A stretch of DNA of 64,000 bases. Source: Acholoe squamosa (lineage: Eukaryota; Annelida; Polychaeta; Phyllodocida; Polynoidae). Position 1 is the stretch's first letter. Each line of letters starts with the position of its first letter. Location of the stretch: contig OX439048.1 of NCBI GenBank assembly GCA_949317995.1, positions 24,371,495 to 24,435,494 on the forward strand, written 5' to 3'. Under the pieces are notes generated by a model, which did not search any database, was not told the DNA's origin, and worked only from the letters and a program-made list of their open reading frames with translations. Below are positions 9,871 to 45,150 of the stretch, in pieces. The position numbers and the translations under genes were made by a program.

Positions 9871-9879
9871 TTTCCCATC

Positions 9880-18100: not shown

Positions 18101-18108
18101 AATGTTGC

Positions 18109-20641: not shown

Positions 20642-20644
20642 TTA

Positions 20645-22727: not shown

Positions 22728-22839
22728 ATATTATATAAAAGTTGCTTAGCATAATGTTTGAGTGACATTTTATTTTTTTATACTTAACTTTTTGACTTAA
22801 AATTTTAGTTATGAATTTTATTTTATTTATTACCTACAG

Positions 22840-23796: not shown

Positions 23797-23974
23797 AAAA
23801 TTCACAAGAAATAAAACATAAGCTTCAAGAAAAGTTACTTTAATGTTTATATGATGTTATATTTGAACATGTGTGCAGCCTATATCATAAATATGTAGTA
23901 TGAAAATGTCATACAAGAATTTCAATGTTTGTTTTATATCTTAAAATAATCCGTCTTGTTTTTATAGGTTCAAG

Positions 23975-24820: not shown

Positions 24821-25157
24821 AGTTTAAGAAAAATAAGGATGTAAAAAAACTACTATGTGATAACTTCTAACAGGTATCCTTTATCACATAAGAGTATATA
24901 ACCTGTAAGTTCGGTGTTTAGTTAGGCACTGTGACATTTCAGGTTAAGAACCTTAAAACAGAACATTCTGTACCATATTTATCAAACAAGTTTTGATATA
25001 TAAAGTCTATTGAAGATAATATGCCTTTACCATATTTGTTGTTGGATTGAAATAAAGAGGATTTATTGTAAGTTATTGAGTAGATATAATAAAGTGTCAA
25101 GTTTTGAGAAGAGATTTCACAGTAAGTTATATCAGAAAAAAAATTGCTGATATAAAG
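24821..25157. promoter_or_regulatory. Intergenic region with a TATGTGATAA hairpin
   Basis: The gap between the two RING-like genes has inverted words TATGTGATAA (about 24853) and TTATCACATA (about 24881). It also has a TATATAACC box and several AT tracts. The GTGATAA word recurs in other intergenic gaps of the element, so this may be a promoter. That is inference from recurrence. Confidence 0.35.
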
Positions 25158-26012: not shown

Positions 26013-26112
26013 TGTTATATAATGTTTTCAATTATGAAATTAATAAATATTTTTCAAGTTTAATTTCTTTGAGAAAATCAAAAAAGTATATATCATATAA
26101 GTAAAAAAAGAA

Positions 26113-30000: not shown

Positions 30001-30545
30001 TATACACGGATACAGACTCATTCATTTATTATATTAAAGATGAACATTTCTTAAAAAAGATAAAAAATATTGAAAATTATTTTGATTTTTCTAATCTTAA
30101 AGAAAGTCATCCTTTATTTTCCTCTAAAAATATGAAAGTTTTAGGAAAATTCAAAGATGAAACAGGAGGGAAAAAAATAAAAGAATTTATAGCATTAAGA
30201 CCTAAAATGTATTCTATTCTTTATGAAACTGGAGAAGAAGAGAAAAAAGTGAAAGGCATAAAAAAAAGTTGTATACAAGAAATAAAACATAGTAACTTTA
30301 AAAAAGTCTTATTTAAAAATAAAATAAGAGAAGATCAATTCTGTAATATAGTAAGTCTTAAACATAAAGTGTATACCATTTCCCTACATAAGATTTCTCT
30401 TTCTCCTTTTGAAGATAAAAGATATTTATGTGATAGTGGGATAAAATCTCTTGCTTATGGACACTATAGTATACCTAAAAGAAAGAAAAAAAGAAAAAAA
30501 AACGAAATACCTTTTCCAGAAATAAAAAAGAAAAAAAGATCATGA
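27042..30545 (+). CDS. pPolB: Protein-primed DNA polymerase B
   Basis: This 1167-residue polymerase would replicate the element DNA from a terminal protein. The N-terminal part (about 160-300) has the extension common in Polintons, with a GNKCFLYSVLAGLHK motif and a C-x2-C ... H-x4-C finger. Exonuclease motif I is YADFEC at about 336-341. Polymerase motif A region: FYIDCNNLYGK (about 722). Motif B: LINSTFGKTLEN (about 890). Motif C: LYTDTDSFIYYI (about 985-996), with both aspartates present. A basic tail (KRKKKRKKN) ends the protein. All key residues are intact and the length is normal for the family. Confidence 0.95.
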   Translation: MIYRRRALKNLITEYDIIPNSLKYDPDLFLFKNLKKVKKKILKVKKEEGGVKFQIGLCVILGKYNLETNEYFQIEPWFLSPVQFGFDSLNLEETIRSSFSIILGFFDSFLHMGSGWFLKKIKVLRISIFKYNPLGGKERQKTKDLIDKKKSILNIKGTGNKCFLYSVLAGLHKVTNNSNLAKSYDIFLNELNLSFITFPVKLNEISQFEKKNNLTINVFGMLETEQKIIQPFPMYISTNSTTVSEGRHVDLLLYDDHYYLIRNLHKFIRPFFWKKTRYFCYKCLISFCSEKKYKSHITQNCNKNPYVGQGYYMPPIGSHLNFSDFKNKVKSPFIIYADFECYNYKMKEPIYKGKSLCEREHKLNAFGAIMVSKYKEYNQDPFIYVGKNVISNFVSYLYQKRAEISYILHHKREPMKLTPQDISHIAKQRKCYVCGVSLTRKGIRKVLDHSHIGREGKGRDINYACNRCNLTYTSLRMDKLKIPIVIHNSMNYDTHFLIQKLYKYVDEKNISVIAKSSEKFLTLSFENFRFIDSFQFLPTSLAKLANLMNEKGTDDFYETKKHLKDKKLLPYVIRKGVMCYDYINSWSVLKEKKLPARKYFYSSLTKENISDEDYQHALFMFKAFKCKNLKDYLKEYLKIDVLLLCDVFESFREKALDYYGLDPSHFLTSPSLSYQAMLKYTGVKLDLFSDIEMYNFIETGVRGGITNVSHRYAIAEEPDEHIFYIDCNNLYGKCLADFLPISDFKWLEKKEINKLEICNIPDDNETGYIMEVTLSYPANLHDRHNSFPLAPEKLEIKKEDLSTYAEQVLKIIGISYKKGGKKLICNLNQKENYVIHYRNLKLYLNLGMKIKKIHRVLSFKQKDWMKPYIDFNTTKRTLATSSFDKEFFKLLINSTFGKTLENVKKRSTMKLTSNPLVSEKLIRKPNFKSLHIFQKDFVGIQYNKERILLNKPIYIGFTVLELSKLWMFNFHYNIMLPAFSESIIQLLYTDTDSFIYYIKDEHFLKKIKNIENYFDFSNLKESHPLFSSKNMKVLGKFKDETGGKKIKEFIALRPKMYSILYETGEEEKKVKGIKKSCIQEIKHSNFKKVLFKNKIREDQFCNIVSLKHKVYTISLHKISLSPFEDKRYLCDSGIKSLAYGHYSIPKRKKKRKKNEIPFPEIKKKKRS

Positions 30546-30612
30546 GATAGCTTGAAAAAACTTTAACCTTATTAACATTAGAAAGAAAGCCTAAGGCATA
30601 ATAAAAGAAAAA

Positions 30613-30930
30613 ATGAACAAATCAGGAAAATACCCTACTTTGGCTTTTGGTCGGAGGAAAAGAATAGATATAAATAAATTTAAAGGAAATATATATTTAC
30701 ATTTTCATGACTTGACTAAAGATAAAAGTATATCTCTTCAAAAAGAAGAGTTTGACCTTCTTCTTCGAATGAAAAATAAAATATATAAAAAAATTGAAAA
30801 AGTTAAGAAATTGAAGAAAGAAAACAAGCAAGAAAAAATAAAAAAAAAGAAAGAAAAAGAACAAAATTTAAGTAGTGATAGCAACAGTGAAAGTGAAATG
30901 GAATTAAGTGAAAATGATAGCAGTGAATAA
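30613..30930 (+). CDS. Small PC4-like protein
   Basis: Of 105 residues, positions 18-60 resemble the PC4/p15 coactivator DNA-binding fold: KFKGNIYLHFHDL, followed by KSISLQKEEFDLLLRMKNKI, which is a strand plus the closing helix. A Lys-rich linker and a Ser/Glu acidic tail follow. PC4 proteins bind single-stranded DNA and act in transcription or replication. A single-stranded-DNA-binding role beside the polymerase would fit. The match is by eye and moderate. Confidence 0.6.
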   Translation: MNKSGKYPTLAFGRRKRIDINKFKGNIYLHFHDLTKDKSISLQKEEFDLLLRMKNKIYKKIEKVKKLKKENKQEKIKKKKEKEQNLSSDSNSESEMELSENDSSE

Positions 30931-31071
30931 TATTATGAAAATATTAATGAGATAAATGAATGACTTACCTTATTACCTTTAAAATAATATTATAAAAATA
31001 TTATTGAGATAAATGAATAACTTAGCTAATTAGCTTTATATATTTTCGTTTTCAATTTTTTATGATAAAAA
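30931..31071. promoter_or_regulatory. Intergenic duplication with GAGATAAATGAAT motif
   Basis: A segment of about 55 bp is present twice, each copy holding a GAGATAAATGAAT word (30949 and 31006) and a TATTAT-A-AAATATTA run. The same GAGATAAA word lies at 35286 and 35783 before other virion genes, so it is a candidate late promoter element. Confidence 0.45.
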
Positions 31072-31797
31072 ATGGTTTCTAAATGTGAATTTTGTGGTAA
31101 AAATGCTGATTTAGTAAAAAATAAAAAATATTGTTTAAAATGTGCAGAGTCAATGGTACAAGAATGTATAAGGTGTCATAGACCTTTTCAATCTTATCAT
31201 TTTTTTACGTCTGATGAAAATCACCTGAGATGTAATGCTTGTTACAATAAATACATGAAAGAAAAGCTAAGAAGCAAAGCTAAATCCGCACAAAATTTCA
31301 GTATAAAAGTCATGGAAGATATGAGCGAAAATGAAGACTCGAACAGCATATCTTCAGAAGAAGAAAAAAATGACTCCACCAAAAATATTGAATCAAACAT
31401 TGTTCGTCCTATCAAGAAAGAAGAAAACTTGAAAAGAAGAAAAGAAGAGAGTGATGATAATGTAAGTCATAACGAAAATGAATATGAAGAAAAAAAAGTA
31501 AAAATACAAGTCAAGAAAAAGAAAAAGATGAATAAGACTTCTAGCAGGGTGGAAAATAATACAAGTGATGATGACTTAAGTCAAGATGAAAATGAAAAAG
31601 CAGGAAGAAAGGAAAAGGTGCAGGTTAAAAGAAAGAGAAATGTGAACAAGCAGCAATCTAATACCTCACGAAATAAAACTAAAATTAATTCTAGTTCAAG
31701 GAAAACAAAAACAGGAAACAAAAGTCTGATATTTAACGTAGATGGAAACATGAAACCGAGTGGCTTCATCCCAATTTACATGCCTGTTAATCAGTAA
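31072..31797 (+). CDS. Zinc-ribbon protein with charged tail
   Basis: This 241-residue protein has an N-terminus with four C-x2-C pairs (CEFC, CLKC, CIRC, CNAC) in the first 62 residues, which could hold two zinc ions. The middle is a long acidic/basic low-complexity region. The last 25 residues (IFNVDGNMKPSGFIPIYMP) look ordered again. Proteins of this type occur in Polintons, but I cannot name a function. A nucleic-acid or transcription role is plausible. Confidence 0.7.
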   Translation: MVSKCEFCGKNADLVKNKKYCLKCAESMVQECIRCHRPFQSYHFFTSDENHLRCNACYNKYMKEKLRSKAKSAQNFSIKVMEDMSENEDSNSISSEEEKNDSTKNIESNIVRPIKKEENLKRRKEESDDNVSHNENEYEEKKVKIQVKKKKKMNKTSSRVENNTSDDDLSQDENEKAGRKEKVQVKRKRNVNKQQSNTSRNKTKINSSSRKTKTGNKSLIFNVDGNMKPSGFIPIYMPVNQ

Positions 31798-32024
31798 ACA
31801 TTTTTTTATTGGATGAATAAAATTAAAAAAATTTCATGGATAACCGTGAAATCTGACAGTATAATATATCGACACACTTTCTATTACATTGAGATGGTTT
31901 AAAATCACGTGATTATATGTATCGTTCTATTCATGTATAAAAATTATTTGATATATTAGAACGAAACCATGCATATCGGATTTCCGTCTCTGTAATGTAA
32001 TACAGGAAATATGTGTCAAAAAAT
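31798..32024. other. Intergenic gap before the integrase
   Basis: It is non-coding. It contains a palindrome AAATCACGTGATT (about 31900) and the AT-rich word TTTGATATATTAGAACGA. It probably holds the integrase promoter. Confidence 0.3.
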
Positions 32025-32984
32025 ATGAACCAACAAACTAAAAACAAAGAAAATATTTTAAAAGAAATATTTTTCAATCCGTCTGATCCTGCCTCTTTCA
32101 GTTCTGCAAATAAATTATATGAAAGTGCAAAGAAAAAAAATAAAAATATAACTCATACGGATGTATCAGCTTTTCTTCATAACACTAGAACCTATACTTC
32201 TCACAAAAAAATAAAACATAGGTTTTTACGAAGAAAAACTATAGTGAAAGGTATAAATGATCAATGGCAAATAGATTTAATTAGTATATTTAATTTAAAA
32301 AATGAAAATGATGATATCAAATATTTACTTGCTTGTATAGATTGTTTTTCTCGTTATGCTTATATTTTTCCATTAAGAAACAAAACAGCTTCCGTCACTT
32401 TAGATGGCTTTAAAAATATATTAATGAAAAGCAAAGTTAAGCCTAGAATTATACAATTTGATGACGGAAGTGAATTTAAAGGTGTATTCAGAAAATATTT
32501 AAAAGAAAATAACATTAAATTTTTCAGTACATCACAAGACACTAAAAGTGCAATAGTAGAAAGATTCAATCGTACTATACAAGATAAAATATATAAATAT
32601 CTTACTTTCAAAAAGACTTTGAGATATATAGATGTACTTCAAAATTTAGTATATAGTTATAATCACAGTAAGCATAGAACTTTAGGTATAAGTCCTTCAG
32701 AAGTAACTAAAGCAAACGAAAAAAAAATATGGATAAAACAATACGGGAAATATTTATTCTCTAAAAAACATCATTTACCCTTTAAAGTTGGAGATAAAGT
32801 TAGAATTACTAAATATAAAACTACTTTTAGAAAAGGATATTCTTCTCATTGGAAAAAAGAAATTTTTCAAGTAGCTTATGTTCTTAGAACTTGGCCTGCA
32901 ACATATGTATTAATTGATAAAAACAATGAAATATTAAGTGGTAATTTTTATAAAGAAGAACTAGTTAAAATTGAAGGAATTTAA
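32025..32984 (+). CDS. INT: Retroviral-type integrase
   Basis: This 319-residue DDE integrase would insert the element DNA, producing the 6-bp duplication seen here. The frame opens at GTG 32013, and the first ATG is at 32025. The rve core has QWQIDLIS (catalytic Asp), QFDDGSEF (second Asp) and AIVERFNRT (Glu). The C-terminus has the SH3-like FKVGDKVRI segment ending at EELVKIE. The N-terminal helical part resembles other Polinton integrases. All catalytic residues are intact. Confidence 0.95.
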   Translation: MNQQTKNKENILKEIFFNPSDPASFSSANKLYESAKKKNKNITHTDVSAFLHNTRTYTSHKKIKHRFLRRKTIVKGINDQWQIDLISIFNLKNENDDIKYLLACIDCFSRYAYIFPLRNKTASVTLDGFKNILMKSKVKPRIIQFDDGSEFKGVFRKYLKENNIKFFSTSQDTKSAIVERFNRTIQDKIYKYLTFKKTLRYIDVLQNLVYSYNHSKHRTLGISPSEVTKANEKKIWIKQYGKYLFSKKHHLPFKVGDKVRITKYKTTFRKGYSSHWKKEIFQVAYVLRTWPATYVLIDKNNEILSGNFYKEELVKIEGI

Positions 32985-32991
32985 AAAAAAA

Positions 32992-33654
32992 ATGGAGCAC
33001 ATAGAATTTCCTATTTTCAATGCATGTATTAGAATACCTTTTTCTATGATAGTAGCAGGTCCTAGTAACAGTGGTAAAACTACTTTTGTTCATAATTTAA
33101 TAGAAAACAGTGATCGCATATTAGACAAAAACATAGATTATTTTATTTGGTGTTATGGTCAAACACCTCCTAAAAAACCTTCTATAATGCAAGATAAAGA
33201 CGTTATTTTCATTAATGGTATTCCTTCTTCTTTTGATAAATACATAAAACCGAACTTAAATGGACTTATTATATTAGATGACTTAATGAAAGAAAGCAGT
33301 AATAATGCAGAAATAGGAAAATTATTTACTCAAACTTGTCATCATGAAGGTTTAAATGTGATATATATATCTCAAAATTTTTTTTCTGAAGGGAAAGAAA
33401 GACAAACTGTGAACAGAAATGCTACTTACCTTGTTATATTTAATTCTCCTTTAGATCAAACAGTGCCTCAAATATTAGGAAGAAAATTATTACCAAAAAA
33501 TCATAAAACTTTTATCAATATTTTTAATGAAGCAACTAGAAAACCACATTCTTATCTCTTAATAGACGGACATCAAAAAACTCCACAAGAATACAGATTA
33601 AGAGGAAATATTTTTGATGTAGGCCAAGATGTTTATATTCCAAATAAAACTTAA
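32992..33654 (+). CDS. ATP: FtsK/HerA-type DNA-packaging ATPase
   Basis: This 220-residue ATPase pumps the genome into the capsid. The start is at ATG 32992 (an in-frame TTG at 32971 overlaps the integrase end). Walker A is GPSNSGKTT (23-31) and Walker B is LIILDD (92-97). A downstream sensor-like IYISQN segment follows the usual order of the A32/HerA packaging family. The size fits Polinton ATPases. Confidence 0.95.
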   Translation: MEHIEFPIFNACIRIPFSMIVAGPSNSGKTTFVHNLIENSDRILDKNIDYFIWCYGQTPPKKPSIMQDKDVIFINGIPSSFDKYIKPNLNGLIILDDLMKESSNNAEIGKLFTQTCHHEGLNVIYISQNFFSEGKERQTVNRNATYLVIFNSPLDQTVPQILGRKLLPKNHKTFINIFNEATRKPHSYLLIDGHQKTPQEYRLRGNIFDVGQDVYIPNKT

Positions 33655-33731
33655 AAAAATGTACGTGTGATAAATGAAATAAAGAATGATATAAAAGACA
33701 AGAAATAGTTTTGTTTATTACGTTTTAAAAA

Positions 33732-34163
33732 ATGCCTAAGAAAAGGAAATCTTTGTTATTAAAAAAAAGACCTATATTAAAAAGGAAAGGGAAAAAAAGA
33801 ATTTTAAAGAAAAAGACTAAAAGAAACAAAAGGCCTAATTTGTCTAGGCAATTAGCTTTCCTTACGGTCTTAAGTAACACTAAAAATAAAAAAAGAAGAA
33901 ATCTTCTGATAGAATATGCAGGAAAAGAAGACATAGATGCTATATGTCAATGCATTTATAACGTACTGAAAGGAAACATTAAATTAAGTCCTTTTTCTTA
34001 TGCTAAACTTAAAAAGCATAAAAAAATTTTAAGATTTTTAGTAAATAGACGTGTGAATAACAAAAAAAGGAAAGCAGTATTGAAACAAAAAGGTGGTTTT
34101 TTGTCTATGCTTATTCCTTTAGCCGTAACTTTACTAGGAGGTTTAGCAGGAAGTAGACAATAA
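33732..34163 (+). CDS. Basic Polinton protein with hydrophobic C-terminus
   Basis: Of 143 residues, the first 35 are almost all Lys/Arg. A helical domain follows (LAFLTVLSNT to LKKHKK), then KQKGGFLSMLIPLAVTLLGG at the end. This combination is found again and again in Polinton and adintovirus gene blocks near the ATPase and capsid genes. It may bind packaged DNA and touch membrane or capsid, like adenovirus core proteins. That role is inference from composition. A GTGATAAATG word lies upstream at about 33666. Confidence 0.75.
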   Translation: MPKKRKSLLLKKRPILKRKGKKRILKKKTKRNKRPNLSRQLAFLTVLSNTKNKKRRNLLIEYAGKEDIDAICQCIYNVLKGNIKLSPFSYAKLKKHKKILRFLVNRRVNNKKRKAVLKQKGGFLSMLIPLAVTLLGGLAGSRQ

Positions 34164-34164
34164 T

Positions 34165-35262
34165 ATGACTGCTTCTTTCAAAAAAAGTATTGTCATTCCT
34201 TTAGTTACATATAAAAAACTTAGAGCTATAGAAGAAATTAAGACGAAAGAAACTAAAAATGAAAAAAATCCTATTCTTGAAAGACAAAAAGAAATATTAG
34301 CAGAAAAAATGTATAATATTCAACCATATAAAGTTTTAAGTACTAATCAAGATATATCTAAACAAAATCCTACTTTTTTTTCTTATTTTCAAGAAAATCA
34401 ATCTGAAAAATCTTTTCATACAGGTATATCTATAGAAGAAATATTATCACATATAAGACAAGCACAAATACCTTACATAAAAGAAATTTTAAAAAAAATG
34501 TTAGCTTTACAATTTTTTTGGAATGATCAGGGTGAAATAATAATGAACGGAAAACTGCTAAAAAATTCTAATGTGATAGACATAATGAAATTTTTTTCTA
34601 ATACTAGCATAAAAAAAGAACCTCTTGGCATTAATGAACTTTGGTATAATTTATCTCCACATATACCTAAATCTTGGTTTCTCAATAAACCAGGAAAAAG
34701 CAAGCAAGATGCTGACGCTTATAAAATAAAAAAATATCCTATAGAAGATCAAAATATAGACATTATAAAAAAACGACAACGACAAATACATAAAAAAATT
34801 GAAAAAGGAAAGATAGAATCCATAGAAGCAACAGATGATGAATATTCAGAAAATGATTACGATGATCCAATTGAAAAATCATTATTTAAAGATTCTGACA
34901 GCGTGGACGACGATAATTTAAATTATCCTCCAGAATATGGTAAACAAAAATTATTTATTCCTTCAGGAGAAGAAAAAACCTTCACAGAATCTGAAGAAAA
35001 TAAAAAAGATGAAGCAAGTGGAGGAATAGGAGAAGAAATAAAAATTAAGAAAATAAAACCAACTTCTTTTGAACAAAAATTCGATGAAGAAAGTGAAATA
35101 GAACCTATGTCCTCTACCCCTCCTTCTGAAGATATTTTTGGAGAAATAAAAAAGAAAAAAAGCTCGTCTAAAGCATCACCACGTAAAACACGTTATGGGA
35201 GATCAAAAAAAACCAACCCTAAATATTATGGGAAAGATTGGGACACGAAATGGAAAAAATAG
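34165..35262 (+). CDS. Conserved Polinton protein of unknown function
   Basis: This 365-residue protein starts two bases after the previous stop. The N-terminal 180 residues are ordered and include FWNDQGEIIMNGKLLKNSNV and a PLGINELW segment, a pattern seen in proteins from the same place in other Polintons. The C-terminal half is acidic and low-complexity and ends in a basic patch (KASPRKTRYGRSKK). No enzyme motif is visible. A virion scaffold or core role is possible. Confidence 0.7.
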   Translation: MTASFKKSIVIPLVTYKKLRAIEEIKTKETKNEKNPILERQKEILAEKMYNIQPYKVLSTNQDISKQNPTFFSYFQENQSEKSFHTGISIEEILSHIRQAQIPYIKEILKKMLALQFFWNDQGEIIMNGKLLKNSNVIDIMKFFSNTSIKKEPLGINELWYNLSPHIPKSWFLNKPGKSKQDADAYKIKKYPIEDQNIDIIKKRQRQIHKKIEKGKIESIEATDDEYSENDYDDPIEKSLFKDSDSVDDDNLNYPPEYGKQKLFIPSGEEKTFTESEENKKDEASGGIGEEIKIKKIKPTSFEQKFDEESEIEPMSSTPPSEDIFGEIKKKKSSSKASPRKTRYGRSKKTNPKYYGKDWDTKWKK

Positions 35263-35323
35263 TAATAAATAAAGAAAAAGCATTTGAGATAAAGAAGAAA
35301 AAATCCTAGGAAAATAAATAAAA

Positions 35324-35770
35324 ATGTATTCGAATTGTGCTCATAAAAAACTTCTTTACAGGCAATTTTTACGAGAAAATAAAAATCCATTATTTTACAA
35401 TCAATATGGAAGTGGATATAATACACTAACTCCTTTCATAGGAAGCAGAAATCAAAGAGGATATGGTATAGGTGGCATACTAAAAGGTTTATTTAAAACA
35501 GTCGTACCTCTCATTACTCCTGCGGTGAAAAGTGCAGGTAAAGCAATAGGAAAACGAGCTCTTAAAGGAGGAATAAAAATTGCAAAAAATGTTTTAAAAG
35601 GTGAAAATATAAAAAAGGCTATAAAAAGAGAAGCTGAAGAAAGTTTGTCTGATTTAGGTTCTCAAGTTATTTCAAACTTTTCAAATCGAAAGAAATTATC
35701 TCCTCAGCCAAAAATTATAAAAAAGAGAAACAGAAAAAAGAAAGGAAGGCATGGTGATATTTTCGGATAG
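35324..35770 (+). CDS. pVI-like minor virion protein with amphipathic helix
   Basis: This 148-residue protein has a GYGIGGILKGLFKTVVPLIT segment (about 46-65) followed by SAGKAIGKRALKGG, which forms a glycine-rich amphipathic region, and a basic C-terminus (KKRNRKKKGRHG). Adenovirus pVI and its Polinton counterparts have this layout and help the particle cross membranes. It sits just before the capsid gene, as expected. The assignment rests on composition and position rather than close similarity. Confidence 0.65.
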   Translation: MYSNCAHKKLLYRQFLRENKNPLFYNQYGSGYNTLTPFIGSRNQRGYGIGGILKGLFKTVVPLITPAVKSAGKAIGKRALKGGIKIAKNVLKGENIKKAIKREAEESLSDLGSQVISNFSNRKKLSPQPKIIKKRNRKKKGRHGDIFG

Positions 35771-35853
35771 AATAAATAGCTTGAGATAAACCGATAACTT
35801 GATCTTTTTATGTTGTCAAAGTAAAAATAAGAAGATACACCTGAACAAAAAAT
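35771..35853. promoter_or_regulatory. Candidate promoter of the capsid gene
   Basis: The gap contains TTGAGATAAACCGATAACTT (35781-35800), a close match to the GAGATAAA words found before other genes of the element. Confidence 0.4.
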
Positions 35854-37221
35854 ATGTCTTTTTTAAATGAAAATTTACATCATTGTATAAGCTCAGAATT
35901 GGATTATAAATATATACCTCCTACTGATACTACAAGAATAAAAACATACTATGAAAAAATAGATCCTACAGCTTCACCAAACAGCAACACTGTTCAATTT
36001 ACATTAAAATCTAACAAAAAAGATTATGTTTCTTTACATAACAGTTACCTTTACATAAAAGCAAAAATATTGAAAGCAGATAAAACAGCACCTGACGCTC
36101 CAGCTAACGATGGAACTATAAATGATAATGCTAAAGTTTTTCCTGTTAATTATTTTGGTGCTACTATGTTTAAGAATGTAAAAGTTTTCGTAGGAGGAAT
36201 AAGAATATCAGACAGCAATGATTTATATGGTTACAAATCAATAATAGAATTTACTTTAAGTTATGATCCTCTTACAGCTAAATGTTTAGGACCATTAGGT
36301 TTTTACATAAAAGACAATAAAGATTTCAATGAAGTTAACACTTTAACAGGTACAGCTCACAATGCAGGAGCTAAAAAAAGATATGAAAAAACAAAAAACG
36401 GAACATTGTTTGAAGTGCATGTAAGAATACATGACAGTCTTTTTTCACAGTCTAAATTATTACCTGGGGACTTGCCTCTTTCTATTGAATTAGATAGAGC
36501 AGATGAAACTTTTTGTTTAATGTCAAAAGTAGAAGCTCAAAAATATATTATAGATGTACAAGAAATAAACTTGTACGTGAAAAGAGTTAGATTAACAGAT
36601 GATTTTCATCAAGAATTAGAAGAAGCAAGAGCTACTAATTTACCTATATGGGATATTCCTATCCATAAAATAGACATGAAATATGTCACTTTCGGTCCTC
36701 AAAAAGCTATTCTTCAAGCTTCACATGTTGTGAATAACACACCTTTACCTAAAAGAGTCATAATTGGTCTCGTGCATTTAGATGGCTTCACAGGCACTCA
36801 TAATCGTAATCCATTTAAATTTGAAAACTTTAAAGTTAAAGAAATAGAACTTAAAGTAAACGATGGAGGAACTCCTTTTTATCATTATGAATTAGATTTT
36901 CCAAATAATATGTATAACATGGCTTATCTTGCTCTCCTTAAATCTACAGGAGATATATTCAGAAATGAAGCACAAAATGTAACCATAGACGAATTTAAAG
37001 AGGGAACAACATTATTTTGCTTTGATATTTCTAAAGACGGAGCAACATCAGAAACTTTTGAATTAACTGAAACTGGTACTTTAGGTTTTGTAATAAAATT
37101 AGAAGAAGAATTAGATCATGGAGTAGCAGCCATTGTATATTTAGAATATGATGAGATCATGAGATTAGACTCAAGTAATATGCTAAAATTTAAGTCTGAA
37201 TTGACTAACCTAACAAAATGA
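35854..37221 (+). CDS. MCP: Major capsid protein, double jelly-roll
   Basis: This 455-residue hexon-like protein would form the icosahedral shell. The N-terminal YKYIPPTDTTRIKTYYEKID, the VFVGGIRISDSNDLYGY segment and the LPLSIELDR-x-D region match the Polinton major capsid family, often annotated as F54H12.2-like in animal genomes. The length is typical, and the protein appears rich in beta-strands throughout. The stop overlaps the start of the protease gene by four bases (ATGA), indicating tight packing of the virion genes. Confidence 0.9.
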   Translation: MSFLNENLHHCISSELDYKYIPPTDTTRIKTYYEKIDPTASPNSNTVQFTLKSNKKDYVSLHNSYLYIKAKILKADKTAPDAPANDGTINDNAKVFPVNYFGATMFKNVKVFVGGIRISDSNDLYGYKSIIEFTLSYDPLTAKCLGPLGFYIKDNKDFNEVNTLTGTAHNAGAKKRYEKTKNGTLFEVHVRIHDSLFSQSKLLPGDLPLSIELDRADETFCLMSKVEAQKYIIDVQEINLYVKRVRLTDDFHQELEEARATNLPIWDIPIHKIDMKYVTFGPQKAILQASHVVNNTPLPKRVIIGLVHLDGFTGTHNRNPFKFENFKVKEIELKVNDGGTPFYHYELDFPNNMYNMAYLALLKSTGDIFRNEAQNVTIDEFKEGTTLFCFDISKDGATSETFELTETGTLGFVIKLEEELDHGVAAIVYLEYDEIMRLDSSNMLKFKSELTNLTK

Positions 37222-37766
37222 ATGGAAAAGAAATAAATTTTTATCTAAATCTCATAAAAGAAGAAAAAAAAGGAGAATATGGAGTGTTTTCAGCAGATAC
37301 CATACCTGAAGTGACGTATTACCCTACTAGTTACATAGTTAACACTGACAACAGTGATTCTCCTGGTGAGCATTGGGTAGCTTTATATTATGAAAAACCT
37401 AATAACTTAGCTGAATATTTTGATTCATATGGATTTCTACCTCTTCGTGAAAGTTTTCTTAAAGCATTACCTGAAAAATATAAATATTCAACTCATGCTA
37501 TACAAGGTTTATTTTCTACAACTTGCGGACAATATTGTTTATATTATCTTGAGAAAAGAGCTAACAACATGTCCATGCAAGATATAATATCTAGTTTCAC
37601 GACTGATACAGACTGGAACGATAATAAAGTAATAAATCATTTCAAAAAGAAAAAAATACCTGTGATAAAAGAAGCTTATTTCCCATATCAAATTTGTCAA
37701 AGCTGCTTACCTAAAAACGATTTCTTAAATAACAATTACACTTTAAAATCTAAAAAATTGAAATGA
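37218..37766 (+). CDS. PRO: Adenain-type maturation cysteine protease
   Basis: This 182-residue Ulp1/adenain-fold protease cleaves virion precursors during maturation. The catalytic residues are in order: His52 in GEHWVALYY, Asp69 in YFDSYG, Gln96 in AIQGLFS and Cys103 in TTCGQYCLYY. It overlaps the capsid gene by ATGA at its start and the next gene by ATGA at its end. The active site is intact. Confidence 0.94.
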   Translation: MNGKEINFYLNLIKEEKKGEYGVFSADTIPEVTYYPTSYIVNTDNSDSPGEHWVALYYEKPNNLAEYFDSYGFLPLRESFLKALPEKYKYSTHAIQGLFSTTCGQYCLYYLEKRANNMSMQDIISSFTTDTDWNDNKVINHFKKKKIPVIKEAYFPYQICQSCLPKNDFLNNNYTLKSKKLK

Positions 37767-38215
37767 CGGAATCAAACCTTTTAAGTAAAATCAATAATGC
37801 AACTAAAAAGAAACTACCAGCTATACAAGCAAGTAGTATTTTAGTTATGTTTGTCTTAGCTATAACAGGTATCATATATAATGAAACACAAAAAAAATAT
37901 TCTTCTCCTTTACAAAAAGGAGATGAAATATTCCTATGTTGTACAGAAACTGGCAACATTTTTCGCAATGGAGAAAAAACACAAAGTTTTTTAACTTGTT
38001 ACATAACAAACATAAATGAGAGAAAAAGCTGGTCCTATCCTTACTTAGGACAGACTGTTTCAAATAATTCTCAAACAAACCAAAGCTCAAGAGTAAATCA
38101 GTTTACTGATATAATAACCATAAATTCCTCTCTTAAAAATAGATATGTTGTAATACATATACCTAAACAAAGAAAAATCGCTGAGATAAATACCACATCT
38201 CCAACTTACAACTGA
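37763..38215 (+). CDS. Single-span membrane protein
   Basis: Of 150 residues, about 20-38 (AIQASSILVMFVLAITGII) form a membrane helix. The following domain has three Cys (CCTE, and a later C) and N-x-S/T sites near NNS and NQSS. It overlaps the protease stop, so it belongs to the virion gene block. It could be a small virion or entry-related membrane protein. The family is not recognised. Confidence 0.65.
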   Translation: MTESNLLSKINNATKKKLPAIQASSILVMFVLAITGIIYNETQKKYSSPLQKGDEIFLCCTETGNIFRNGEKTQSFLTCYITNINERKSWSYPYLGQTVSNNSQTNQSSRVNQFTDIITINSSLKNRYVVIHIPKQRKIAEINTTSPTYN

Positions 38216-38263
38216 TCAAAAAATATCACGCTGATCCTATAAACAATAACTTATATTTTAAAT

Positions 38264-38686
38264 ATGGATTATTTAAAGATTCAATTAAACTATGAAAAAG
38301 AACGTAATGAAATCCTAGAAAAAATTTGTCACCATCAACACTCATACATTTGCTCGTTAGAAAAAGAGAAAACTGAATATCAAAACAAAATAAAAGAAGA
38401 AGAAGAAAAAAATTCTTCTCTCTCTTATAAAATAAAAGAGACAGAAAAAGAAGTCATGAGTATGTTAGCACATAGAAAAGCCTATGGCATAGCTAAAATG
38501 GAGAGGGAATACAGGAAAAGAAAAGGTCCGATTTACATAAACACTATAGTATCAGACAGTAATGATAAGGATGAAGAAGCTGCTGAAGATATAGATATAG
38601 TAGATCTCCCTCGTGAGAGTTTATTAAACATATATAGAAGTATACCTGATGAAGTGTTTTATGAAGAAAAACATGAATGTGATTAG
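38264..38686 (+). CDS. Coiled-coil protein of unknown function
   Basis: Of 140 residues, about 1-75 are a heptad-like Glu/Lys-rich coiled coil. The C-terminal half has an acidic patch (DKDEEAAEDIDIVDLPRES). No catalytic motif was seen. It may be a structural or scaffold protein. Confidence 0.6.
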   Translation: MDYLKIQLNYEKERNEILEKICHHQHSYICSLEKEKTEYQNKIKEEEEKNSSLSYKIKETEKEVMSMLAHRKAYGIAKMEREYRKRKGPIYINTIVSDSNDKDEEAAEDIDIVDLPRESLLNIYRSIPDEVFYEEKHECD

Positions 38687-38716
38687 GTATACTTAATCAC
38701 TGCTATATAATTCAAA

Positions 38717-39358
38717 ATGAGTTTTCAAACATACAGCATAAGAAATCTTTTAAAAAATAAGAACATCAGTGACGAAATAGCAATCAAATATGTTAATGCT
38801 AAAAAAGAAAAAATTATATGCAATTCTGCTTTCATAAACATACTCCTTGAACACTATAAACAGGTATTCAAGCATAGGCAAATAATATCTGCAGCCTTTT
38901 TCGTTATAGGAGAAACAGTATTTAATTATGCAGAAAAAATATGTCTTATAAAACGATTAAATATGCATGATTTATCAAAATTATCAGTAAAAGAAGCTAT
39001 AGGTTATACCTTAAAATTCTTTTCTACTGAAGGTCTTAAAGATGAAAAAGACAAAAAAATTTGGGAAAATGCATTAGATCATCATTATAAAAATAATGAT
39101 CATCACCCTGAATACTATTCAGGTAAAAACATGGAAAAATATGCTTTAATTGAAAGTGTATTTGATATGATAGCCTGTCATATAGAAAAAGATTTGAAAA
39201 TTAAAAATATAACTGTGAATGATATTTTAAACGGAGAAATTACCTTTCATGAAATGTTAAACATTAATCCAAATTTCTTTAGTAGATACACTATCGAAGA
39301 CAGAGAAAAAGTAAATTTTTATCTTGCTTCGTGGAAAAGTATTCTAAGTCAGCAATAA
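38717..39358 (+). CDS. DUF5662 family, HD-like protein
   Basis: The 213-residue protein has the His/Asp set of DUF5662: LNMHDLSKLSVKEAIGY (His84-Asp85) and DHHYKNNDHHPEYY (about 121-133), followed by FDMIACHIE (Asp150, His154). This is an HD-like metal site. The family is known mainly from phages, bacteria and large viruses, with no settled function. Phosphohydrolase activity on nucleotides is the natural guess. A nucleotide-directed enzyme would fit beside the dUTPases further on. All metal-binding residues seem intact. Confidence 0.75.
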   Translation: MSFQTYSIRNLLKNKNISDEIAIKYVNAKKEKIICNSAFINILLEHYKQVFKHRQIISAAFFVIGETVFNYAEKICLIKRLNMHDLSKLSVKEAIGYTLKFFSTEGLKDEKDKKIWENALDHHYKNNDHHPEYYSGKNMEKYALIESVFDMIACHIEKDLKIKNITVNDILNGEITFHEMLNINPNFFSRYTIEDREKVNFYLASWKSILSQQ

Positions 39359-39361
39359 AAA

Positions 39362-39616
39362 ATGCTTAAAATAAAAAAATATATTATTACAAATTCTGTA
39401 AATAAAAAAACAAAAACACAAATCACAAACATTAAATATACAAGTTTTACGATATCTTTACTGGCTATATATTTGTTTTTTACTTACTGTATCATATATG
39501 AACTTATGCATATTGTAATATTATGTCCTTTTTTATATATCATATATAACCTTATACATATTATATTATTTCTGTTTTTGCATCATAGTATACTTGTTTC
39601 CGATACTACTTTGTGA
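39362..39616 (+). CDS. Possible small hydrophobic protein
   Basis: This 84-residue frame begins three bases after the previous stop. Residues about 28-75 form two hydrophobic segments (ISLLAIYLFFTYCII and LHIILFLFLHHS-like). It ends inside the first copy of a 38-bp tandem repeat. It could be a small membrane protein, but the AT-rich composition makes chance frames of this sort possible. Confidence 0.35.
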   Translation: MLKIKKYIITNSVNKKTKTQITNIKYTSFTISLLAIYLFFTYCIIYELMHIVILCPFLYIIYNLIHIILFLFLHHSILVSDTTL

Positions 39617-39709
39617 TACAGCTAACATAACCAGTTTCCGATACTACTTTGTGATACAGCTAACATAACCAGTTTCCGATACTACTTTGTGATAGAGCTA
39701 ACATAACCA
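39597..39709. repeat. Three copies of a 38-bp repeat
   Basis: TTTCCGATACTACTTTGTGA plus TACAGCTAACATAACCAG is repeated three times head to tail, nearly without change, before the Death-domain gene. It holds the GTGATA word shared with other intergenic gaps and may be regulatory. Confidence 0.85.
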
Positions 39710-39745
39710 ATCTTAACTTTACATCTGATTACATATAACTTCAAA

Positions 39746-40366
39746 ATGCCTTTGCCATCCTATTATTTCAATCAAGACTTAGGTTATTCTGATCAAGTCT
39801 TACAACAAATATCTGTACTGTTAGGTACAGACTGGATGAAACTAGGTATTTATCTAGGCATACCTGATCACCGTTTAGAAAATATTTTTAAGTCTAAAAA
39901 ACCATGCGAAATGGCATTAGAAATGTTAAAAAAATGGTGGAGAAATGTTCCTCCATACAAGAGATGGGAGGAACTAGAAACAAGTTTTCTGGAAACTAGC
40001 AGAAGAGACTTAATAGAATTCACTCAAAAATATTTTGGCGAAAAATTATTGGAAAATTACCATACTGATTCCACTGCTATATATCTTTTCTTGAGCAAAT
40101 TGAGCGAAAAAATACCATCAGACTGGAAATATATCGCTATTTATTTAAACATATCATATAAAGATATAAAAAATATTTCTTATGAACCTGAACGTGACTT
40201 AACTCAATATGCCTTCCAAGTGCTAAAAATGTGGCAAACATCTAAATACAGTGCAACTCACCATCTCATAAAAGCTCTGTCTGACATGAACAGAAAAGAT
40301 GGTTTGAAAATTATCTTCGATGAATTCGATAAAAGAACAGGAAGTGAACAAGCAGGCTTTAATTAA
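39746..40366 (+). CDS. Protein with two tandem Death-fold domains
   Basis: In this 206-residue protein, the first repeat (about 10-92) reads LLGTDWMKLGIYLGIPDHRL ... ALEMLKKWW ... WEELETSF-LETSRRDLIEF. This is the classic Death-domain pattern of six helices with D-W and the closing R-x-D-L. The second (about 108-198) repeats it: IPSDWKYIAIYLNIS ... YAFQVLKMWQ ... HHLIKALSDMNRKDGLKIIF. Death domains assemble apoptosis and innate-immune complexes in animals by self-association. A virus-borne protein with two such domains and nothing else would act as a decoy or adaptor. The domain call is strong; the role is inference. Confidence 0.8.
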   Translation: MPLPSYYFNQDLGYSDQVLQQISVLLGTDWMKLGIYLGIPDHRLENIFKSKKPCEMALEMLKKWWRNVPPYKRWEELETSFLETSRRDLIEFTQKYFGEKLLENYHTDSTAIYLFLSKLSEKIPSDWKYIAIYLNISYKDIKNISYEPERDLTQYAFQVLKMWQTSKYSATHHLIKALSDMNRKDGLKIIFDEFDKRTGSEQAGFN

Positions 40367-41366
40367 AATGTTAAAATATCTTTGTGATAAGCTTTAATAA
40401 CTACAATACAGTTAGTCATAACAATTTATTAGTTATAATATATTATCATGTTATCTGATTATAAGATTGCTTTAAATATCTTGTGATAAGCTTAAATAAC
40501 TAAATATTATAATAAATAATACAGCAACAATAGTAACAACTGTCATAGTTATAATTTTTTATCATATTGTCATCTAATCATAAGATTGCTTAAAATATCT
40601 TTATGATAACCTTAGATAACTGTATATCATAACTAGTGATATAACAGTTGTAACAACTTACTATTATCATAATATAATATTGTTATCTGTTTATAACTGC
40701 TTTTAATATAGTTGTGATAAGCTAAGATTGTAATAACTTGATATAGTTATAATTTTTTATCACATTGTCATCTAATCATAAGATTGCTTATGATGATCTT
40801 AAATAACTATATATCATAACTAGTGATATAACAATTGTAACAACTTACTATTATCATAACATAATATTGTTATCTGTTTTGTTATCTGTTTATAACTGCT
40901 TTTAATATAGTTGTGATAAGCTAAGATTGTAATAACTTGATATAGTTATAATTTTTTATCACATTGTCATCTAATCATAAGATTGCTTATGATGATCTTA
41001 AATAACTATATATCATAACTAGTGATATAACAATTGTAACAACTTACTATTATCATAACATAATATTGTTATCTGTTTATAACTGCTTTTAATATAGTTG
41101 TGATAAGCTGAGAACTAAATAACTATATATCATATAACAAGTAGTATAGCAATAATCATAAGTACTTAGTATTATACATACTATAGTTATAACATTATAT
41201 TGTATTATCGCTTTAAATATCGCTGAAATAAGCTTAGATAACTATATCATAACAAGTCATTAAACAAGTCATAAGTACTTAGTATAGTTATAACTTCATA
41301 TTATTACTGATATTAGTTATAACTTCATATTATTACTGATATCTTTATATATCAATATCAACAAAA
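40367..41366. repeat. AT-rich intergenic array with repeated GTGATAAGCT motifs
   Basis: This is one kilobase without genes, made of imperfect repeats of about 170-180 bp. Shared words include TTGTGATAAGCTAAGATTGT, AATAACTTGATATAGTTATA and AACTAGTGATATAACAATTG. Each unit has a GTGATAAGCT word and short inverted repeats of the TTATAACT kind. It could be an enhancer-like or origin-like region, or simply a minisatellite. It lies between the Death-domain gene and the dUTPase. Confidence 0.8.
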
Positions 41367-42047
41367 ATGGCATATTCACACGAGTCTTATTATGTAACAC
41401 TTACGGATAACAGAAATACAGCATTAATAACACCATGCAATACTCCTGTTACCACGCCTGATATAAATCCTATAAGTAAACCTGTGATATATTATATAAA
41501 AAATACAGAAAGAGCGATTGAACCAACAAGATCAACTAAAGAATCTGCAGGATTTGATTTATACAGTGCTTATGATTATATTATTCCTGCTAAAGAAAGA
41601 ATGTTGGTGAAAACTGATTTAACGCTTGCTATACCTCCAGGATGCTATGGTCGCATAGCACCTAAATCAGGTCTTGCAGTTCATCATTTTATTGATGTTG
41701 GTGCAGGAGTAATAGATGGAGACTATAGAGGCACTGTTGCCGTCCTACTGTTCAATTTTGGTAATAAAAACTTTGAAATAAAACATGGAGATCAAATAGC
41801 TCAAATCATCATAGAAAGAATTTGCATCCCTCACCTTGAAGAAGTATCTGTTCTTAATGTAACTGAAAGAAACAAAAGAGGATTCGGATCAGGGAAAGAA
41901 AAAACAACTAATGAAACTGAAGAAAAACCAGTTGAAAAAATGGATGAAGAACCATCAAGAGAAAACCCTGTCAATGAAGAGGCTGCAGATGAAGAACAAT
42001 TCTTTGATGCAGTTGAAGAACAAGCCTATGAAGAAAAATCAAATTAA
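41367..42047 (+). CDS. dut: dUTPase with acidic C-terminal extension
   Basis: This homotrimeric dUTPase converts dUTP to dUMP and pyrophosphate, keeping uracil out of the viral DNA. All five motifs are present: AGFDLYSA (61-68), PKSG (99-102), GAGVIDGDYRG (112-122), GDQIAQ (141-146) and RGFGS (171-175). The N-terminal 45 residues are an unusual Thr/Pro-rich extension. The C-terminal 45 are acidic. Just after the stop, a 67-bp tandem duplication repeats the end of the gene out of frame. Confidence 0.95.
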   Translation: MAYSHESYYVTLTDNRNTALITPCNTPVTTPDINPISKPVIYYIKNTERAIEPTRSTKESAGFDLYSAYDYIIPAKERMLVKTDLTLAIPPGCYGRIAPKSGLAVHHFIDVGAGVIDGDYRGTVAVLLFNFGNKNFEIKHGDQIAQIIIERICIPHLEEVSVLNVTERNKRGFGSGKEKTTNETEEKPVEKMDEEPSRENPVNEEAADEEQFFDAVEEQAYEEKSN

Positions 42048-42139
42048 GAATCAGCAAAAGAAAAAACGAGTCGATGCAGTTAAAGAACAAGCCTATGATG
42101 AAAAAGCATTAAAAATAAAAAAAATCAACATCATATAAA
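42006..42139. repeat. 67-bp tandem duplication at the dUTPase end
   Basis: GATGCAGTTGAAGAACAAGC at 42006 is repeated as GATGCAGTTAAAGAACAAGC at 42073. Because 67 is not a multiple of three, the second copy lies in a different frame and is not part of the protein. It shows recent slippage. Confidence 0.85.
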
Positions 42140-42326
42140 CCATTAATAAAATCAATGAAATGCCCTCCATCTCTCGATGTGAAATTATCCCTAATAAAAA
42201 AATTAAATAAAATCGAGTTATGTTTTTTATGCATACAATATAACAAACAAAATATCCTTGGGATAAACTAAAAAATCACACAATCTCTATGATAAACTAA
42301 AAAATCATACAACCAAAAAAAACATA

Positions 42327-42923
42327 ATGGGCAACAAAGCAAAAGTAGATGAATGCTTGCTTTATATTTTACAAGATTCTGATTACAATGATCATTCACC
42401 TCGAAATAATATTTTTCCATATGAAAACACTAAAATAATTACTTTTATTTTAAAAAATGAAATAGCAGAACTTTTTTTAAATAAATGGAAAAACGATGAA
42501 GTTCAAACTTCTTCACTTTTAAATGAAGTAATAAAAAACTTTAAAAAATTAATCAATGTCATGTATTACACAGATCACTTTGGAGTTAAATGGCAAACCC
42601 GAGATAATTCAAGATACAGCAAAATTTCAATAATATTCCATGGAAATAGTCGTATCAATAAAACTACTACAGTACTTAAGTCTAAAGAATATAAAAATTT
42701 TATCCAGTCATTGAAATCTGCGAATATACTATTTTTAGATCAAACAATCACTTTCAGAAGTCAATTTCAAAGTATACTAGAACACATATGTAACTCATTC
42801 TCTGCCACTCTGTTCATAAATGATGACTTAATTCTTTATTTTCCCGGCTGGAGACATATAAATGAATCAATACCAGCAGAAATTTATGATTTAGATCGTC
42901 TTTGGTATCCACTCTCTGTGTAA
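42327..42923 (+). CDS. Unknown 198-residue protein
   Basis: This open frame has normal AT-rich Polinton codon use and a good ATG context (AACATAATGG). It appears globular and mixed alpha/beta, with no membrane span, no signal peptide and no motif I can name. GGGATAAACTAAAAAATCA and a near copy ATGATAAACTAAAAAATCA precede it at about 42257 and 42291, likely promoter elements. Confidence 0.6.
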   Translation: MGNKAKVDECLLYILQDSDYNDHSPRNNIFPYENTKIITFILKNEIAELFLNKWKNDEVQTSSLLNEVIKNFKKLINVMYYTDHFGVKWQTRDNSRYSKISIIFHGNSRINKTTTVLKSKEYKNFIQSLKSANILFLDQTITFRSQFQSILEHICNSFSATLFINDDLILYFPGWRHINESIPAEIYDLDRLWYPLSV

Positions 42924-43022
42924 CACGGTTGCTAAGGTATGCGCTACAAATCGAGTAAACACTCGTTACTAAGTGTAGCTATGACAACATAACGTAGCAA
43001 CATAATTCATTGCGTCAAAAAA

Positions 43023-43562
43023 ATGGCTGACAACGAAACTATAATGAATAACATTGAATCATCAACCTCAGAAGATGAAACAAGTTCAGAAGAAAGTCAT
43101 CATCGGTATGAAACCAATTTCACAGTGCGAGCACATAGTTACACGGATCAAGGTGAAGTGAAAACGTGTTTGCGAGGATGTTATAACATTTCCTACAATC
43201 TCGATTTAGTTGTTATGTAAGATGACGTGCCGCACGAAGACAACACACTCGTATACTTGGATGTAAAAGAAGAACAAAAGATCGAAATTTTCGAAGAAGA
43301 ATGGACCGAACTCTCATCTAAAATGGATCAAATAAAACATCTGTTTAGTTCGAACGTTAACATGAACTCTAAAATTGAAATAGAAGGTTTCACCGTCACC
43401 AAATTAAACTGGGATACGTTACTGTTCGCATCAAAGAACATTGAAAGCCACTTCATGTTAAAACTAAATCAGTTAGATAAACTGAATACTGCGATGGAAG
43501 ACATTCAAGACAAAGAACTTTTTGACTATCTTGATATACTGTACATTTTAGAAGAAGAATAA
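43023..43562 (+). pseudogene. Gene split by an in-frame TAA, possibly PC4-like
   Basis: Two open segments (43023-43220 and 43221-43562) lie in the same frame and are separated only by the TAA at 43218-43220. No ATG follows the stop closely. The N-terminus has a Ser/Glu-rich region (SSTSEDETSSEES), as PC4 coactivators do. After the stop comes IEIFEEEWTELSSKMDQIKHLF, which resembles the PC4 closing strand and helix. Codon use is less AT-biased than in adjacent genes. It is either a freshly broken gene, a readthrough gene, or two genes. The family match is weak. Confidence 0.5.
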
Positions 43563-43672
43563 GAAAAACAGAATCCTAAAGGTAAAACACACTTCTTAAT
43601 GTCTCTGAATGATATAAATGTCTCTGTGAATGCACGCTTCTTAATAGTCTTAAAGTACAGTCAATAAAAAAA

Positions 43673-44143
43673 ATGGGAAACAAACCTGTTTTAGGATATA
43701 CTAGATATGATTCCAATACATTTCCTCTAAGCAAAGAAAAAACTAACGCTGTAGGATTTAATTTATATAGTGCTTTCAGTTATATAATTCCAGCCAAAGA
43801 AAAATGTTTAATTGAAACAGGCATCAAAGTTGCTGTCCCTACTGGGTATTATGCACGTATAGCACCATTAAGTGGGCATAGGTTTAAGTATACAAATGTT
43901 AAGGCAGGAATCATAGACAATGATTACAGAGGACAAATTCATATCCTTTTTTTAAATTTTGGTGAAAAAGAATATAAAATAAATTGTGGAGATCCGATTG
44001 CACAACTTGTATTGGAAAAAATATATAATATTGCATTAAAAGAATCTAACAAACTCAAAGATACTCCTTATTCGAAAATATGTTTCCAATTAAGACACAG
44101 CAAAATATATGAACAGTGGCGTAAAGAAACACATATGTTCTAA
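43673..44143 (+). CDS. Second dUTPase-like protein, active site degraded
   Basis: This 156-residue protein is a paralogue of the dUTPase at 41367. The motif counterparts are GFNLYSA (28-34, Asp to Asn), PLSG (65-68, Lys to Leu), AGIIDNDYRG (78-87, catalytic Asp and Tyr kept) and GDPIAQ (106-111). The glycine-rich motif V is absent and replaced by an unrelated basic tail. Loss of motif V and changes in I and II make normal dUTP hydrolysis unlikely. In other viruses, inactive dUTPase relatives have taken on signalling roles, so a host-directed function is possible. Confidence 0.85.
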   Translation: MGNKPVLGYTRYDSNTFPLSKEKTNAVGFNLYSAFSYIIPAKEKCLIETGIKVAVPTGYYARIAPLSGHRFKYTNVKAGIIDNDYRGQIHILFLNFGEKEYKINCGDPIAQLVLEKIYNIALKESNKLKDTPYSKICFQLRHSKIYEQWRKETHMF

Positions 44144-44347
44144 TGATATGATTTTATAATAATACTTAACTCTGTTCTATTACATTATTATAATAAAATG
44201 TATTATATCCAAACAACTTGTTTCACTTCATTTTTATTTTCACTTATAGACAGCATAATACTTCAATCAAAGTGTCAAATGATCTGTACATCACATATTT
44301 TATTTATCATCGTAATACAAGAATTGCTTTAAATCCAATGAAAATGA

Positions 44348-45150
44348 AAATCTATCGTTTCAATTGTAAACTAACGCTGTAAATTCCTCTAATAACTCAG
44401 GAAATGTTCTTTGCTGATATCAATGAAACATAACAAAAAAATAAAGGAGAAAAAACTCTGTCCCTAAATCACTCAAACTGTTGAAAAAAATCTATATCCT
44501 CTTAAACTGAATGTCTATTTGTTCATAGACTTAAAGGTGTAACACCACATTTATGATTTCACTGCTGAGGTGGAGTATAAAAGGAACGCAATGTCTGGGG
44601 TTAATTGGAGAGGTCCGGCCCTCATGTCACAAACCTCCACGCCTGTAGCTCCAAGTACTAGCTTCAGTGTGAACAAAATCACGACTATTCGTGCGACCTT
44701 ATCAACTTAGAACGGCTGATACTCTCATTGTTAGGTGATGCTCCCACTGTTGGTTGAAGCGTGTATGCTCCCATCAGTTGGTAGAAGCAACCATACATAA
44801 TGGTCCTCCTGTTTCAGTAACGCTCACCGTTCCTTAGAGCACTGATCTGGAATTGAACGTGTTCCACAATCCTCCTTCAATTCTTCAATCCTCCTTCAAT
44901 CCTTCAATCCTCCTTCAATCCTTGGTGCACTTAGTTCATTCCTCTGTACCGAAAGCTCAGCTAAGAACCGTGTGACATGAGAACCACTTGACCTCTCTTT
45001 TGTATTTAAAATTTATGATATGATTACTATTTCCAAAAATAATCCTAATATCCAAAATAATAGGTATTTTCTGGATATTCAAAAAATATAGGTCTTCTTT
45101 GGATATTTTTTTTAAAAATATCCAAAGAAGACCTATATATATATACTACT
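44348..45150 (-). repeat. Right terminal inverted repeat of the Polinton
   Basis: It is the reverse complement of 8637-9470 with minor changes and fewer minisatellite units. It ends ACTACT at 45150, followed by the AATGTA duplication. The tip hairpin lies at about 45086-45138. Between the last gene and this repeat (44144-44347) only AT-rich sequence is seen. Confidence 0.93.

What the first reader, a model, noticed from the sequence alone, without database searches (positions are those of the whole stretch)
39746..40366. Virus-borne protein made of two tandem Death domains
Both halves carry the Death-fold pattern (D-W near helix 2, W/Y-rich helix 4-5, R-x-D-L near the end), with no enzyme or membrane part. 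A pure double Death-domain protein would be well suited to jam or rewire apoptosis or innate-immune assemblies. I know of no standard Polinton gene of this type.
Basis: partly seen in the sequence, partly recalled or inferred. Interest (0 to 1): 0.87.

Follow-up and report, generated by a model that had tools for sequence, protein, structure and literature searches.

The report
Polinton virus gene with twin Death domains
A virus-like mobile element in what appears to be an animal genome carries a small gene made of two Death domains, related to a host gene with the same two domains, so it is probably a captured signalling part that disturbs the host's cell-death or immune machinery.

Summary
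Confirmed. ORF 39746-40366 (206 aa) is two Death domains (Pfam, two stretches; each half passes alone, the first only just; a model of the first half alone matches ankyrin-G and FADD Death domains). It lies inside a 36.5-kb Polinton (8637-45150; ~840-bp terminal inverted repeats, 6-bp target duplication AATGTA). It is not a one-off: two further Polinton families in the same genome carry it in the same place (capsid, protease ... DUF5662, DD-DD, dUTPase), at 56-59% identity and dN/dS 0.08-0.15 (dS near saturation). The host genome also holds an intron-containing gene (contig C17) whose exons 2 and 3 each encode one Death domain and which aligns with the viral protein over both (58/186 identical). 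The viral version has no introns and lacks the host's 234-residue tail. Best reading: a captured, tail-less relative of a host tandem-DD adaptor, acting as a decoy or cap on Death-domain assemblies, as vFLIPs do with tandem DEDs. Common origin is well supported; direction of transfer and of effect (block rather than activate) are inference. No paper in one open-access library holds both 'Polinton' and 'death domain'. New variant of a known kind (viral death-fold-only mimics).

The parts
39746..40366 (+). tandem Death-domain gene, 206 aa, no intron
   Evidence: Pfam Death two stretches
39785..40045 (+). first Death domain (residues about 14-100)
40067..40330 (+). second Death domain (residues about 108-195)
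   Evidence: Pfam 42.3 bits alone; PIDD, ankyrin-3, FADD DD by sequence; 23/81 to host exon 3
39596..39709 (+). three 38-bp direct repeats just upstream of the gene, possible control region
   Evidence: function not tested
40371..41130 (+). array of about 199-bp repeats (two copies identical at 40680-41078) between the Death-domain gene and the first dUTPase gene
   Evidence: in the B and C loci compared this gap is only 238 and 140 bp
38717..39358 (+). upstream neighbour, DUF5662 protein, 213 aa; homologue upstream in families B and C
   Evidence: Pfam PF18907 E 4e-23; (in the C locus only its last 51 residues are in the stretch held)
41367..42047 (+). downstream neighbour, dUTPase, 226 aa; a dUTPase-type gene also follows in families B and C
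   Evidence: Pfam E 5e-41
43673..44143 (+). second dUTPase-type gene, 156 aa
   Evidence: Pfam E 4e-27
37218..37766 (+). adenovirus-type protease
   Evidence: Pfam Peptidase_C5 24.0 bits, cut-off 21.3
35854..37221 (+). major capsid protein candidate, 455 aa
   Evidence: Pfam DJR-like weak, under cut-off; homologues in families B and C; identity inferred from size and place
32992..33654 (+). packaging ATPase (A32 type)
   Evidence: Pfam Pox_A32 27.4 bits, cut-off 22.8
32025..32984 (+). retrovirus-type integrase
   Evidence: Pfam rve E 2e-12
27042..30545 (+). protein-primed DNA polymerase B candidate, 1167 aa
   Evidence: size, place and polymerase motifs by reading (recalled); Pfam gives only a sub-cut-off endonuclease VII stretch
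8637..45150 (+). whole Polinton, 36,514 bp, both ends
   Evidence: TIRs 8637-9475 and 44343-45150, 848 aligned, 90% identical; TSD AATGTA at 8631-8636 and 45151-45156

Best explanation
The gene is a captured, intronless, tail-less relative of a host gene that encodes a tandem Death-domain adaptor. Polintons took up a spliced copy long ago (before families A, B and C parted) and have kept it under purifying selection between their structural genes and their dUTPase genes. The protein most likely works as a soluble Death-domain-only decoy: its two domains dock onto the partners of the host adaptor (or on the adaptor itself) through the usual homotypic Death-domain surfaces and, having no tail or effector, cap or poison the growing assembly, so that cell-death or immune signalling in the infected cell is blunted. 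Shown: fold of both halves, place in the element, conservation in three families, selection, homology to the host tandem gene. Inferred: direction host to virus, loss of the tail as the functional point, inhibition rather than activation, and the identity of the pathway.
For: Both halves are Death domains. Host gene on C17 (locus L053): four exons read from the sequence with GT-AG ends and all three introns in phase 1, one open protein of 451 aa; exon 2 = first DD, exon 3 = second DD, exon 4 = 234-aa Gln/Pro-rich tail. Viral A aligns over both domains: 58/186 identical, 104 bits; P0002 61/196; B 50/185; C 52/186. N half of A matches exon 2 best (31/84, 64 bits) and its C half exon 3 best (23/81, 44 bits), above the 7 other host Death-domain exons compared. 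Tree of 18 domains: viral N halves with host exon 2 and P0003, 96/99; the 11 tandem rows apart from the 7 other host DDs, 93/90. Scanning the genome with the host protein, of 150 scored rows (1971 candidates) 2 are the two exons of the C17 gene and the other 148 run across the exon 2/3 junction in one stretch, 8 of them with one internal stop. Families B and C: same gene order, with capsid, protease and the next gene upstream in the one locus of each that was read. dN/dS 0.13, 0.15, 0.08. Within family A, 47 of 48 fetched copies align over the full gene, none of the 47 with an indel.
Against: No function was tested and the function of the host gene is unknown. dS between families is 1.7-2.3, near saturation, so the ratios are rough. 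The family A copies were picked by their match to this protein, so their intactness is biased; some fetched copies do carry early stops (L009, L042). The host exon 2 alone is just under Pfam's Death cut-off (21.0 against 22.6). The C halves do not form a supported group with host exon 3: that part of the tree is an unresolved fork. P0002, the closest protein outside this genome (75/187 to A), sits on a 1034-base contig, so its carrier is unknown. Direction of transfer rests on introns and extra exons of the host gene (no RNA evidence), not on a rooted tree of many species.
Confidence: 0.6

Rival explanations
1. Same captured adaptor, but it activates: the tail-less tandem DD nucleates Death-domain filaments and switches on a survival pathway (NF-kB-like), as KSHV vFLIP does (recalled), helping the element's cell to survive.
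For: Death domains assemble by seeding (recalled), and the helix 2, 4 and 6 hallmarks of both domains are kept; selection keeps both domains.
Against: Nothing separates it from the decoy reading; the lack of the host tail fits a cap more simply, but does not exclude a seed.
Confidence: 0.2
2. Reverse direction: the host gene on C17 is a domesticated Polinton gene that later gained introns and a tail, and the Polinton protein is the original.
For: At least 150 scored Polinton copies against one intron-split place among the 150 rows scored.
Against: Host gene has three phase-1 introns and extra exons; P0003, from another source, is 72/96 identical to its exon 2 and its match also ends at the exon end; Death domains are an animal adaptor domain (recalled).
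Confidence: 0.08
3. The protein has been turned to a job inside the virus, for instance virion assembly or DNA packaging, and no longer touches host signalling.
For: It is encoded downstream of the capsid and protease genes on the same strand.
Against: It sits in its own interval, with 387-608 bp of non-coding sequence upstream in the A, B and C loci compared, next to dUTPases, which are accessory enzymes; the Death-domain hallmark residues are kept (surface residues were not examined).
Confidence: 0.1
4. Chance resemblance of helical repeats, or a host gene read into the element by mis-assembly.
For: N half is near the Pfam cut-off alone.
Against: Profile and structure matches, 150 scored places at 98-100% identity, three families with one gene order.
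Confidence: 0.02

Closest known systems
Host tandem Death-domain gene, contig C17, locus L053 (unnamed; exon-2 relative P0003)
   Same: Two Death domains in the same order, homology over both (58/186 identical)
   Different: Host gene has introns, a short Cys-containing N-terminal exon and a 234-aa tail; the viral gene has none of these
vFLIPs such as MC159 of molluscum contagiosum virus (recalled; search listing only)
   Same: Virus-borne protein made of two tandem death-fold domains, derived from a host regulator (recalled)
   Different: vFLIPs carry DEDs, not Death domains; here the DD profile and fold rank first, and the carrier is a Polinton
Death domains of ankyrin-G, FADD, PIDD, RIPK1
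   Same: Same fold; among the best solved-structure matches by sequence and structure
   Different: DDs in proteins of other architecture; weaker by sequence than the C17 gene
bDLD3, bacterial Death-like domain (PMC8195603, passages read)
   Same: Profile match 29.0 bits for A and 33.5 for C, over the cut-off of 27.1; B 25.8, under it
   Different: Weaker than PF00531 (60.8 bits for A), and found in bacterial conflict systems
Polinton/Maverick elements
   Same: TSD of 6 bp, long TIRs, integrase, protease, A32-type ATPase, capsid and polymerase candidates
   Different: 36.5 kb and with this Death-domain gene; no paper of the library holds both 'Polinton' and 'death domain' ('Maverick' with 'death domain' was not searched)

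Membership tests
Death domain (PF00531) | profile match above the curated cut-off in each half | tested here: met
   N 23.0 and C 42.3 bits against 22.6; whole 60.8; families B 56.5 and C 58.4, two stretches each
Death domain (PF00531) | six-helix Death fold | tested here: met
Death domain (PF00531) | Trp in helices 2 and 4 and RxD at helix 6 (PMC8195603, passages) | tested here: met
   invariant columns of A2, 4 sequences
Death domain (PF00531) | homotypic binding to other Death domains | not testable with these tools
   needs protein work
Polinton/Maverick | TIRs and 6-bp target duplication | tested here: met
   TIR 848 aligned bases at 90%; AATGTA both sides
Polinton/Maverick | integrase, protease, packaging ATPase | tested here: met
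   rve 47.6 bits, A32 27.4; Peptidase_C5 24.0; each over its cut-off
Polinton/Maverick | protein-primed PolB and double-jelly-roll capsid protein | tested here: inconclusive
   right size and place; no Pfam match above cut-off
vFLIP / tandem DED proteins | two DEDs | tested here: not met
vFLIP / tandem DED proteins | blocks or rewires death-receptor signalling | not testable with these tools
   working analogy only
Relative of the host tandem-DD gene (C17) | homology of both domains in order, N with exon 2 and C with exon 3 | tested here: met
   tree support for N halves 96/99, C halves unresolved

The most novel reading that the evidence does not exclude
A whole branch of animal Polintons lives with a captured tandem Death-domain adaptor as a core accessory gene; the host gene on C17 is the hub of an undescribed Death-domain antiviral pathway, and the Polinton protein is its dedicated antagonist, so the virus gene points to the pathway.
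Probability: 0.35. Interest if true: 0.87.

Novelty: new variant of a known kind. Interest (0 to 1): 0.72.

Why it matters
Whether Polintons are real infecting viruses of animals or only transposons is an open question (general knowledge, not from a call). A signalling-adaptor mimic kept under strong selection in at least three Polinton families argues that they face host cell-death or immune defences, as viruses do. The find also names a concrete host gene (tandem DD plus tail) as the probable target or partner, which makes the idea directly testable.

Full report

Where it lies. The gene is inside a Polinton. Terminal inverted repeats at 8637-9475 and 44343-45150 are 90% identical and are flanked by the 6-bp duplication AATGTA, so the element is 36,514 bp; by reading, it sits in a Ty3-type retroelement. 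It has an integrase (rve), an A32-type ATPase and an adenovirus-type protease above Pfam cut-offs; the polymerase and capsid genes are assigned by size, place and homology only. The order around the gene is capsid candidate, protease, two small unknown proteins, DUF5662, tandem DD, dUTPase, unknown, dUTPase. In another 40 scored places (142 candidates) the genome holds the left-arm exon 17121-17426, so the long left arm belongs to the element elsewhere too.

Not a one-off. In the whole genome (1.48 Gb, 63 contigs, unnamed) the protein was found in 150 scored places, the number that the tool scored out of 2068 candidates; 3 of the 150 rows show an internal stop. A scan with the Death profile (150 scored of 1880 candidates) brought out two more multicopy families. 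Family B (for example L063) has a protein with 118/200 residues identical to A and family C (L079, one copy read) one with 113/201; B and C share 150/200. Both have two Pfam Death stretches, both lie between a DUF5662 homologue and a dUTPase-type gene, and one 2-kb stretch upstream of one copy of each encodes the capsid homologue (67 and 69% identical), the protease (65 and 63%) and the next gene (53 and 49%). dN/dS (Nei-Gojobori, own script) is 0.13, 0.15 and 0.08, with dS 1.7-2.3, so nearly saturated. Within family A I fetched 48 copies (8 top-scoring, 40 from the lower-scoring end of the 150): 47 align over the whole gene, none with an indel, against 11 with indels of 46 for the DUF5662 gene and 2 of 12 for the first dUTPase gene (most stretches were too short for it); 28 amino-acid-changing, 21 silent and 2 stop variants, pN/pS 0.31, against 0.41 and 0.68 for those two genes. 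These copies were chosen by this protein's score, so the comparison favours it. Copies with a broken frame exist (L009, L042 in A, L073 in B).

The host relative. Among the host-like Death-domain exons brought in, one, L053 on contig C17, matched both viral halves best. Reading that locus showed a second Death domain on the preceding exon. With GT-AG ends and phase-1 introns, four exons give one open protein of 451 aa: 26 residues with several Cys, DD1 (exon 2), DD2 (exon 3), and a 234-aa Gln/Pro-rich tail (no RNA evidence). Viral protein A aligns with it over both domains, 58 of 186 identical, 104 bits; first half with exon 2 (31/84), second with exon 3 (23/81), both ahead of the seven other host exons compared. 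A tree of 18 domains groups the viral first domains with host exon 2 at 96/99 and sets the tandem rows apart from the other host domains at 93/90, but leaves the second domains as an open fork. Searching the genome with the host protein (150 scored of 1971 candidates), two rows are the two exons of C17; the other 148 run through the exon junction, 8 of them with one internal stop: family A, a further family with 200-residue frames, and some 25 rows that differ from both by score and frame length. Whether these others are Polintons was not tested. The last protein search, with the host row in the profile, found two proteins of 1168 candidates: P0002 (234 aa, unsplit, 75/187 identical to A) and P0003 (137 aa, 72/96 identical to host exon 2). 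P0003 suggests that the host gene exists in another organism too; P0002 comes from a contig of 1034 bases, so its carrier is unknown.

How it probably works. Established (recalled): Death domains act by homotypic, helical assembly, and proteins made of the death fold alone (vFLIPs with two DEDs, PYD-only proteins) serve viruses and hosts as caps and decoys. Inference: the Polinton protein keeps both docking domains of a host adaptor and lacks its tail, so it should bind the same partners and leave the assembly without its output. A seed that activates survival signalling is the main rival. The lack of introns fits capture of a spliced transcript. Presence in three families with saturated silent sites says that the capture is old, and the selection says that the protein did something in each line.

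Check against print. No paper of the library holds both 'Polinton' and 'death domain', none holds 'viral death domain' or three like phrases; the other listings and passages are named under Tried and rejected. One open-access library was searched, and 'Maverick' together with 'death domain' was not.

Noticed in passing
window 15095-17426, minus strand: A spliced-looking secreted or membrane protein gene in the left arm of the Polinton, by reading: signal-peptide-like exon (17121-17426), Thr/Pro-rich stretches and a transmembrane end (15095-15685); no Pfam match for the two pieces tried. The first exon recurs at about 100% identity in the 40 places scored of 142 candidates, in the one that I compared (C1:23265990) at the window's distance from the Death-domain gene. 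Possible attachment glycoprotein.
   Followed up: partly
window 41367-42047 and 43673-44143; L063 1991-2563: Two dUTPase-type genes in the window's element and in L063 of family B; one of the latter (L063 1991-2563) seems by reading to have lost the usual catalytic motif, so it may be a dUTPase-derived binder rather than an enzyme.
   Followed up: no
window 38717-39358: A DUF5662 protein is the neighbour of the tandem Death-domain gene in the A, B and C loci read; Pfam names no function for the family.
   Followed up: partly
window 9870-12422: Long array of about 121-bp repeats inside the left arm of the Polinton.
   Followed up: no
window 45909-54500: Large repetitive stretch right of the element that gives long mechanical ORFs rich in Cys, Leu and Tyr in several frames; probably not genes.
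   Followed up: no
window 42327-42923: Unknown 198-aa gene between the two dUTPases, faint sub-threshold PCNA_N match (14.8 bits, cut-off 20.3).
   Followed up: no
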